DNA from: Chrysomallon squamiferum
Taxonomy: Eukaryota > Mollusca > Gastropoda > Neomphalida > Peltospiridae
Length of the DNA stretch: 64,000 nt
Direction of reading: 5' to 3'
Assembly (NCBI GenBank): GCA_012295275.1
Contig: CM022665.1
Coordinates: 47,874,602-47,938,601 of the forward strand
A program made the translations under genes and the position numbers. The notes beneath the pieces were generated by a model. It had not been told where the DNA came from, did no database searches, and worked only from the letters and a program-made list of their open reading frames with translations. Below, piece after piece: positions 47,013-60,877 of this stretch; position 1 is the stretch's first letter, and each line of letters opens with the position of its first letter.

Positions 47013-50000
47013 CTGTTACAAACACAATTAATTTACTGCCATAATTAAGTTAATAGAGTAAGTCAGTGTAGGCATAGCATAATAAACTCCGTTATTTGTC
47101 AAAAATATTCTAATTAAATGTCTAGATTTTTTAAATAGTTCATTGAAAATACAACAAATTATCTTTAATGTGTAACTTATTTAGTGTGTAAACTTTCACA
47201 AAAGAATATATCAGTGCGTGTGCAAACTATCAAAAACTGTGTTATAAAAAACAGTGTCACCAAAGCAATATGAAAATATATCTCCGTGAACAGTGGTATT
47301 ACAAACATATACCTCTGTCAAGGTATTATCAAAACATAACTATCAACAAAGGCATTAGAAAACCATATCTGTAAACAACAGCAACACTTGAAAGTGAATC
47401 TGTGCATGTGAAAATACCTCTCTGTCAATGCACGCAAACTGCCAGGGCCAGTGTGTGTTGTAGAGGAATTGGCGATGGTCAAAGCGGTTGTCATCAGGAC
47501 TGTAGGACTCTGCATGGTAGGCTGGAGTGAGAACAGTCATTTTGTGTCGGTTGATTGAGTAACTTCGGAAGAAATGTTTAACTTTGTCAGCAACCTGTAA
47601 CAAACGTGTTTTATTTTATCTACACCCTGCAAACAAGTTTGTGCATCAGTATCCTACGCTGAATTATGATTTGAGTCTATCACTGTCCTATAATACTTCT
47701 AACTTCTACAAACAACTTATATATGACCCTGATGCAGTTCTTCAAACATTTCAAAGTTGTGTAACCAGCTGATGAATACTTGGAATTTAAAACAAATTTA
47801 CTATCAACACAACAGCAAACCACAACTGGAGAAGAAGAAGAATGGAAGAGAGCATGAGACAGTTTACCTGAGCTGGAGTGTAGCAGTGAGCCCAGACGTG
47901 TACAAGTTTACAAAACATGCTGTACGGTCCACACAACTTCTGTTTGCGCAGACGACCAAACACAGACAGTTCTTTGTACGTCATACCCATGTCTTGCTGA
48001 AACCGTCAACCACAAAACAATAACATGACAGTTTGCTTATCAACACAGAGTACTAACTACTGCTTTTTCAATAATTTAATATAATTTACAGTTGTCTTAA
48101 GGAGGTGTAATTTTTTTACATATATATATTTTTATATAAGAATAAACAAGGCTAGAAAAATGTGGAAAACTTAAATTACCTCCACCTTCAGACAAACTTA
48201 GTGTGTACTTATTTATATCAACATTTCAATCAAAGATGTATATTTTAAATTCTAATGTATATATACACTCACTCTCTCTCTCTCTCTCTCTCTCTCTCTC
48301 TCTCTCTCTCTCTCTCTCTCTCTCTCTCTCTCTCTCTCTCTCTCTCTCTCTCTCTCTCTCTCTCTCTCTCTCTCTCTCTCTCTCTCTCTCTCTCTCTCTC
48401 AAATATTAAACTTCATAATTTGTGTGATTAGTAATAGACAGTTCATGTCCTTCTTTACAGTAAACTAACTATATATGCACTTTTTACAACAATCTTCCCA
48501 AGTTATCTGATGAGATATTCAGTGTATAATGAAAGTCATTAACAGTTATGTTGTAATGTGTTTAAAATTTCTCTTCCTCACCTCATCAGTCTGAGCAATT
48601 CTTCCATCTGCTAATGGTTCCAGCTCAGCAGTAGGAGGAGCATCCAAGATCCTGTTAAAAATATTACAATACACAGTGTCACAGATGTTATAAAACTAGT
48701 GTTAAAAATATAGTGTCACAGGTGATATAATATTTAATTTTACAAGCATTAGATTATAAAACTAATGTTAGAAATGTTATGATTAGTGTTTTAATGTTAA
48801 AAGTGTTATAGTACTCACTGATAACAGTAATAACAATATTACAATACTGTTAAAAGTATTTTAATTATAACACTATCTGTTAACTGTTACACTGTCAAAA
48901 GCAGTAATAGCATTATTATTATGACACTATTAAAAATAGTAACAATGTTTTAATTATAACAATTTCTATTAAAATTAATAACACTGTTTTATTTCTGGCG
49001 CTGTTGAAAGTGATAATGTTGAAAGGAGGGATATGTATAAGACTTTCCACAATACCAAAAACATATTACGTAGATAGAATCCACCAACATTAAATTCATA
49101 TATTTATAACAAATGAAACAATGAACAGTTGTATACACCATAATGAATTATGTCAACTCACCCAAGAAGAGAGGTAAGTCCAAACTTCGTTACTGAGTAC
49201 TTAATAAAAAGTCGCAGATCTGTTTTACTGATTCCACCAATAGGGTTAACATCAGCACTGGAACAGTCATACTTTGTCATGTAGCCTCGTAAACTGTGAA
49301 ATACAGGTAAAGTACTTAGTTACATAGCCTTGTAAACTGTGAAATACTTTGTCATATAGCCTCGTAAACTGTGAAATACATATAAAATACTTAGTTACAT
49401 AGCCTTGTAAGCTGTGAAATACTTTGTCATGTAGCCTTGTAAACTGAAATATACTTTGTTACGTAGCCTTTTAAACTGAAATATACTTTGTCACATAGTC
49501 TTGTGCACTGTAAAATATAAAATTATACTTAACAATAAAATCTTATAAAAATTTAATACGATGTATGAATATTAATGATATGAAATGGAAGAAAAGATGG
49601 ATATTTAAAGATTTATGCAGTTAAAATTAGAACACTTTCAAACCTTTCGTCTACATTGGCTGATCCAAGAACCAGCAGACCTCCTGATCTGTTCCGAGCC
49701 CACAGACACAACTGAGCAAACATGTAGGCTAACACCATCCTTAGTCGAGCCTGTTGTAAATACAATGTGTAAACATGTAGACTAACACCATCCTTAGACG
49801 AGCCTGTTGTAAATACAATGTGTAAACATGTAGGCTAACACCATCCTTATCACGAGCCTGTTGTAAATACAATGTGTAAACATGTAGGCTAACACCATCC
49901 TTAGTCGAGCCTGTTGTAAATACAATGTGTAAACATGTAGGCTAACACCATCCTTAGTCGAGCCTGTTGTAAATACAATGTGTAAACTGTTGGCTAAACC

Positions 50001-60877: not shown

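What the first reader, a model, noticed from the sequence alone, without database searches (positions are those of the whole stretch)
47305..60490. Exon-intron junctions of NADSYN1 repeatedly seed intronic minisatellites
Eleven junctions in 10 of 18 introns carry tandem copies of the junction itself. These are exon 2 acceptor, exon 4 donor, exon 5 donor, exon 8 acceptor, exon 9 donor, exon 11 acceptor, exon 12 acceptor, exon 13 donor, exon 14 acceptor, exon 15 acceptor and, weakly, exon 18 donor. In each case one unit joins coding bases, the splice site and intron flank, and the real exon edge is the terminal unit. The period differs at each junction (about 31 to 81 bases), so each array arose independently. 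Few arrays in this gene lack an exon edge. Tandem duplication across splice sites is a known route proposed for intron gain, but repeated use of it within one gene to build decoy-site arrays is not something I can name. It may be a splice-linked break or slippage process, or selection tolerating only arrays that keep a usable site.
Basis: seen in the sequence. Interest (0 to 1): 0.9.

Follow-up and report, generated by a model that had tools for sequence, protein, structure and literature searches.

The report
Splice-site repeat arrays in snail gene
In one gene of a snail-like animal, many introns have grown by tandem copying of short pieces that span the exon edge, leaving rows of decoy splice sites; this is a known curiosity of lancelets, found here in a mollusc and in some neighbouring genes too.

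Summary
NADSYN1 is on the minus strand in 19 predicted exons. Eight of its 36 splice junctions carry clear copies of the junction itself: exon 4, 5 and 13 donors, exon 8, 11, 12, 14 and 15 acceptors. Exon 2 acceptor has one diverged copy, the exon 9 donor array lacks GT, exon 18 donor is not supported. The protein groups with abalones, so the organism is a gastropod, not a lancelet. Such arrays were named "mirages" in amphioxus (PMC3087553, PMC3902484, passages). They are not special to NADSYN1: 5 of 72 junctions in five neighbouring genes and one donor on another contig show them. Preferential seeding at junctions is unproven. Random placement of whole arrays gives 4.0 or 6.0 crossings against 7 seen (P 0.05 or 0.38); a founding-unit null gives an excess in NADSYN1 (7 against 2.7, P 0.008) but not in the other five genes (3 against 2.3). 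Best reading: intronic minisatellites, some of whose founding units crossed a junction, tolerated because the exon-proximal site is used.

The parts
46863..60877 (-). NADSYN1 (glutamine-dependent NAD synthetase), 19 predicted exons (exon 19 without homologue support)
   Evidence: protein search
58814..58986 (-). array on exon 4 donor (junction 58957), 61-base unit, 2 decoys, both with GT
57648..58659 (-). array on exon 5 donor (junction 58643), 55-base unit, 16 decoys, 10 with GT
56014..56481 (-). AT-rich array on exon 8 acceptor (junction 56008), 28-36 base spacings, 8 copies at 22 of 30 or better, 7 with AG
53247..54716 (-). array on exon 11 acceptor (junction 53271), 55-base unit, 27 decoys, all with AG; 25 exon bases per unit
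52209..52856 (-). array on exon 12 acceptor (junction 52249), 81-base unit x4 plus a composite array that runs on from it
50835..51302 (-). array on exon 13 donor (junction 51273), 38-base unit, 11 decoys, all with GT
49718..50576 (-). array on exon 14 acceptor (junction 49750), 53-base unit, 14 decoys, all with AG
49269..49517 (-). array on exon 15 acceptor (junction 49293), 32/43/75-base spacing, 4 decoys, all with AG
60244..60473 (-). exon 2 acceptor (60244) and one diverged junction copy at 60473 in intron 1; weak
55298..55587 (-). array next to exon 9 donor (junction 55577), 52-base unit; copies hold about 10 exon bases but no GT; weak
57377..57626 (-). array in intron 5 without an exon edge, 52-base unit
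52961..53082 (-). array in intron 11 without an exon edge, 48-base unit
59036..59186 (-). array in intron 3 without an exon edge (25 bases from exon 4), 28-30 base unit

Best explanation
The arrays are 'mirages': intronic minisatellites whose founding tandem duplication happened to span a splice junction. Genes of this genome gain short tandem duplications (units of about 30-80 bases) often. A duplication wholly inside an exon would usually break the protein and is lost. One in an intron, or across a junction, leaves the exon intact because the exon-proximal copy is still a complete splice site, and it can then expand into the intron by slippage or unequal exchange. The spliceosome ignores the decoys probably because it recognises the short exon as a unit (exon definition), so the exon-proximal site wins although many decoys are as strong. 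Shown: junction copies, the proximal copy being the one that keeps the reading frame, intact decoys, the same in some other genes. Inferred: slippage as the origin, selection against exonic copies, exon definition as the reason for tolerance.
For: 8 of 36 NADSYN1 junctions duplicated, against 3 of 1557 by chance. Arrays cover 52% of NADSYN1 intron bases, and 46% in CTU1, 49% in the B4GALT part tested, 33% in CSTF2, 16% in PAK, 9% in IkB. Duplicated junctions occur in 3 of 5 other genes of the region (5 of 72 junctions; 4 of 72 at the stricter 24 of 30) and at a donor of an ANKRD42-like gene on contig C2, so it is not NADSYN1-specific. Other-gene crossing counts match a founding-unit null (3 seen, 2.3 expected). 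At 12 of the 13 duplicated junctions, 129 of 144 decoys keep their AG or GT and 105 of those 129 score within 0.5 of the real site or better, so site strength alone cannot select the real one. Using the nearest decoy would shift the frame in 9 of 11 cases tested and meet a stop in one more. Chosen without looking at the dinucleotide, copies keep it at 0.909 against 0.947 for the eight neighbouring columns (higher in 5 of 12 arrays, lower in 4, equal in 3), as expected if decoys are neutral. Exon-side and intron-side array ends share short homology in at least two arrays (E11: TGTGG; E13: about 12 bases, not perfect), as slippage predicts (by eye).
Against: NADSYN1 itself has more junction-crossing arrays than the founding-unit null predicts (7 against 2.7, P 0.008; six genes pooled 10 against 5.0, P 0.02) and more duplicated junctions than the other five genes (8 of 36 against 5 of 72, Fisher P 0.03), which chance leaves unexplained unless the gene was noticed because it is extreme. 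Three of five CTU1 arrays stop 7-9 bases short of an acceptor, and six-gene arrays crossing or ending within 10 bases of a junction exceed one of two placement nulls (P 0.017). Array ends that share homology could also be plain partial units. All but one of the other genes lie in one 294 kb stretch. No RNA data, so correct splicing is inferred.
Confidence: 0.72

Rival explanations
1. A splice-linked or transcription-linked process (for instance R-loops or stalled polymerase at splice sites) makes exon-intron junctions hotspots for tandem duplication.
Against: The other five genes show no excess of crossing arrays (3 against 2.3); results depend on the null chosen; NADSYN1 was selected after the fact.
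Confidence: 0.13
2. Decoy splice sites are kept by selection, for example because arrays that keep usable sites protect or regulate splicing.
For: 129 of 144 decoys keep their AG or GT; in five of 12 arrays the dinucleotide is better kept than its eight neighbours, most clearly PAK exon 9 (1.00 against 0.84) and exon 15 (1.00 against 0.91).
Against: Over 12 arrays the dinucleotide is kept slightly less than its neighbours (0.909 against 0.947; lower in 4, equal in 3); in exon 5 donor copies it is 0.66 against 0.98. E9 donor copies lack GT. Most nearest decoys would shift the frame (9 of 11).
Confidence: 0.05
3. Assembly artefact: repeated junction copies made by the assembler.
For: No reads could be examined.
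Against: Spacings vary within several arrays and the exon 5 donor array mixes units with and without GT; duplicated junctions occur in 5 of 7 genes looked at, on two contigs; collapse is the commoner assembly error for repeats (general knowledge).
Confidence: 0.04

Closest known systems
Mirages of amphioxus (Adh3, globins BflGb6 and BflGb9, troponin C, PGBD5)
   Same: Tandem units spanning an exon-intron boundary; donors and acceptors both affected; many but not all copies keep AG or GT (PMC3087553 and PMC3902484, passages read).
   Different: Here a gastropod allied to abalones, not a cephalochordate; 8 junctions in one gene; length polymorphism and splicing not examined.
Human internal tandem repeats in segmental duplications (PMC2812944, passages read)
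   Same: Minisatellite expansion (units about 30 bases) that can lie at an exon-intron boundary; the authors propose novel introns from it.
   Different: Recent primate paralogs; repeats within exons or turned into introns; here existing introns are enlarged and the exon is unchanged.
Intron gain by tandem genomic duplication (Rogers model; potato RdRp gene, PMC4974935, search listing and start of abstract only)
   Same: Tandem duplication of a segment with splice signals.
   Different: Here the copies lie in introns next to real edges; no new intron was shown or sought.
Ordinary intronic minisatellites
   Same: Unit size, copy number, probable slippage origin.
   Different: The unit includes coding bases and a splice site.

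Membership tests
mirage minisatellites | tandem unit spans an exon-intron boundary | tested here: met
   8 of 36 NADSYN1 junctions
mirage minisatellites | unit length near the reported ones (10-72 bases in Adh3, 150-160 in globins, per PMC3087553 passage) | tested here: met
   about 28-81 bases; the 81-base unit lies between the two reported ranges
mirage minisatellites | many but not all copies keep AG or GT | tested here: met
   129 of 144; 129 of 148 when copies are chosen without the dinucleotide
mirage minisatellites | copy-number instability between alleles or in somatic cells | not testable with these tools
   one assembly only, no reads
mirage minisatellites | regular splicing not disturbed | not testable with these tools
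   no RNA; the exon-proximal sites give an intact protein
intron gain by tandem duplication | a new intron at a new coding position flanked by the duplicate | not tested
   intron positions were not compared with relatives

The most novel reading that the evidence does not exclude
Exon-intron junctions in this genome are true hotspots for tandem duplication, so that a splice-linked process, not chance, builds decoy-site arrays gene after gene and feeds intron growth and possibly intron gain.
Probability: 0.13. Interest if true: 0.75.

Novelty: new member of a known kind. Interest (0 to 1): 0.42.

Why it matters
It would extend mirages from lancelets to a mollusc and suggest that they are frequent (13 of 108 junctions tested in six genes) wherever gene-borne minisatellites form at a high rate. 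Such a genome is a natural test bed for how the spliceosome picks one of up to about 30 near-identical sites, and for the proposed route from mirages to new introns.

Tried and rejected
Amphioxus as the source of the window: rejected, NADSYN1 groups with Haliotis (support 96/95), and the amphioxus protein is 69% identical against 74% for Haliotis asinina. Gene-specific explanation: rejected, other genes show it. Enrichment tests gave different answers with different nulls, and both are reported. Search of the own genome with PF02540 found nothing; exon-by-exon matching makes this uninformative. Rfam at gathering cut-offs found nothing in the window. The first 10 kb of contigs C21 and C22, looked at in the hope of a mitochondrial genome, look like satellite (repeat finder on C22 only). 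PMC12783039 (earthworm metallothionein, passages) describes minisatellites inside an intron; the passages do not describe copies of the junction. Rows dropped before the counts: first and last predicted exons of CTU1 and CSTF2, the first two and last of the IkB-like gene, the first two of B4GALT (uncertain). The ANKRD42-like gene is not in the 108, as only its first aligned exon is secure. Borderline junctions not counted: CSTF2 exon 4 acceptor (26 of 30 with 10 exon bases, 21 with 15) and PAK exon 5 donor (23 with 10, 21 with 15); CTU1 exon 5 acceptor is counted but only just passes (22, one copy). Some fetched loci hold masked N runs (L005, L009-L011).

Full report
What is there. NADSYN1 lies on the minus strand, window 60877 to 46863, in 19 predicted exons of 54-177 bases and 18 introns of 172-1846 bases. 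Tandem Repeats Finder shows minisatellites in many of the introns: 15 merged arrays of period 24-160 cover 52% of intron bases. By density this gene has 10.6 such arrays per 10 kb, against 3.9 to 6.8 in the other stretches measured.

Junction copies. With 15 exon and 15 intron bases per junction, 8 of 36 junctions have a copy at 22 of 30 or better within 2 kb, and 7 of 36 at 24 or better. The chance rate, from junction windows searched around junctions of other genes, is 3 of 1557 and 0 of 1557. In the whole gene 52% of intron windows, 5% of exon windows and 22% of half-and-half windows are repeated, so junctions are repeated less often than intron positions at large. Decoy numbers at 22 of 30 or better are 2, 16, 8, 27, 3, 11, 14 and 4 for E4d, E5d, E8a, E11a, E12a, E13d, E14a, E15a. 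E2 acceptor has one copy, E9 donor copies lack GT, E18 donor fails.

Organism. The predicted protein is 74% identical to Haliotis asinina, 72% to Haliotis rubra and to several bivalves, 71% to Patella and 69% to amphioxus (best 120 of 4874 listed). A tree of 37 sequences puts it next to Haliotis with support 96/95, within the gastropod rows, support 96/96. The assembly is 404.6 Mb in 22 contigs. The species was not identified.

Other genes. Duplicated junctions: 2 of 22, 0 of 16, 1 of 18, 0 of 8, 2 of 8, that is 5 of 72, all acceptors; 4 of 72 at 24 or better. CTU1 exon 12 acceptor has 32 copies, the two B4GALT acceptors 14 and 3, the PAK exon 9 acceptor 10, CTU1 exon 5 acceptor one. On contig C2 a donor of an ANKRD42-like gene has two copies with intact GT. 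NADSYN1 at 8 of 36 is higher than the five (Fisher P 0.03).

Is the junction a preferred seed? Two nulls were run. Placing each whole array at random in its intron with 30 or 60 bases of exon allowed gives 4.0 or 6.0 crossing arrays in NADSYN1 against 7 seen (P 0.05 and 0.38), and 2.9 or 5.2 against 3 in the other five genes (P 0.57 and 0.93). Counting also arrays that end within 10 bases of a junction, six genes give 16 against 10.4 or 13.9 (P 0.017 and 0.27). Collapsing each array to one unit and placing that unit at random, the more faithful picture of how arrays start, gives 2.7 against 7 in NADSYN1 (P 0.008), 2.3 against 3 in the others (P 0.41) and 5.0 against 10 pooled (P 0.02). The excess of crossings is therefore carried by the gene in which it was noticed. 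I regard preferential seeding as unproven.

Do the decoys matter? At 12 of the 13 duplicated junctions, 129 of 144 decoys keep AG or GT, and 105 of the 129 score within 0.5 of the real site or better by a simple site score. These decoys were chosen by likeness to the junction, which favours intact sites; chosen on the other 28 columns, 129 of 148 keep both bases, and the dinucleotide columns are 0.909 alike against 0.947 for the eight columns around them, higher in 5 arrays, lower in 4, equal in 3. That fits neutrality. Use of the nearest decoy would shift the frame in 9 of 11 arrays; in exon 12 it is in frame with a stop; in exon 11 it is in frame and open, adding 17 residues. In the duplicated junctions mapped the real site is the one nearest the exon body. 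Short exons with longer introns fit exon definition, which is an inference here.

Origin. Two array ends show short homology between the exon-side and intron-side breakpoints, TGTGG at exon 11 and about 12 imperfect bases at exon 13 (by eye); these could also be partial units, and a systematic count was not made. Different periods suggest separate origins.

Known kind. Passages of PMC3087553 describe minisatellite-like duplications of intron-exon boundaries in amphioxus globin genes, call them mirages after earlier work on Adh3 that reported somatic instability, and propose them as a route to new introns. PMC3902484 (passage) adds PGBD5 and cites troponin C. The original Adh paper is not held and was not read. 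PMC2812944 (passages) reports human minisatellites in duplicated genes, some at exon-intron boundaries, with proposed new introns. Nine paper searches listed no other paper whose title or start of abstract names mirages; one search listed 15 of 70, most listed papers were not opened, and the library is partial, so this is not proof of absence outside lancelets.

Verdict. A real, well-supported set of mirages in a gastropod gene, present in several other genes of the genome, with an unproven hint of junction preference. New member of a known kind.

Noticed in passing
window 15463-23632 and 24008-43837; contigs C22 (L017) and C21 (L018): A satellite of about 375 bases fills much of the window and the first 10 kb of contig C22; C21 looks alike by its translations.
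   Followed up: no
L013:437+, L012:411+, L012:7514+: At least three copies of a reading frame resembling the SYNJ2BP PDZ domain (name recalled), about 7-10 kb apart.
   Followed up: no
L001:7350-, L005:3433-: Two OLIG-like bHLH reading frames about 36 kb apart (name recalled).
   Followed up: no
CTU1, L006-L007: CTU1 is split into at least 12 predicted exons of 42-125 bases, and three of its five arrays stop 7-9 bases before an acceptor without crossing it.
   Followed up: partly
window 62871-63094: Probable terminal exon of an unidentified gene on the plus strand, followed by a 29-base minisatellite at 63217-63346.
   Followed up: no
six genes, 13 duplicated junctions: Acceptors are duplicated more often than donors (10 against 3; 5 of 5 outside NADSYN1), although the C2 case is a donor.
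   Followed up: no
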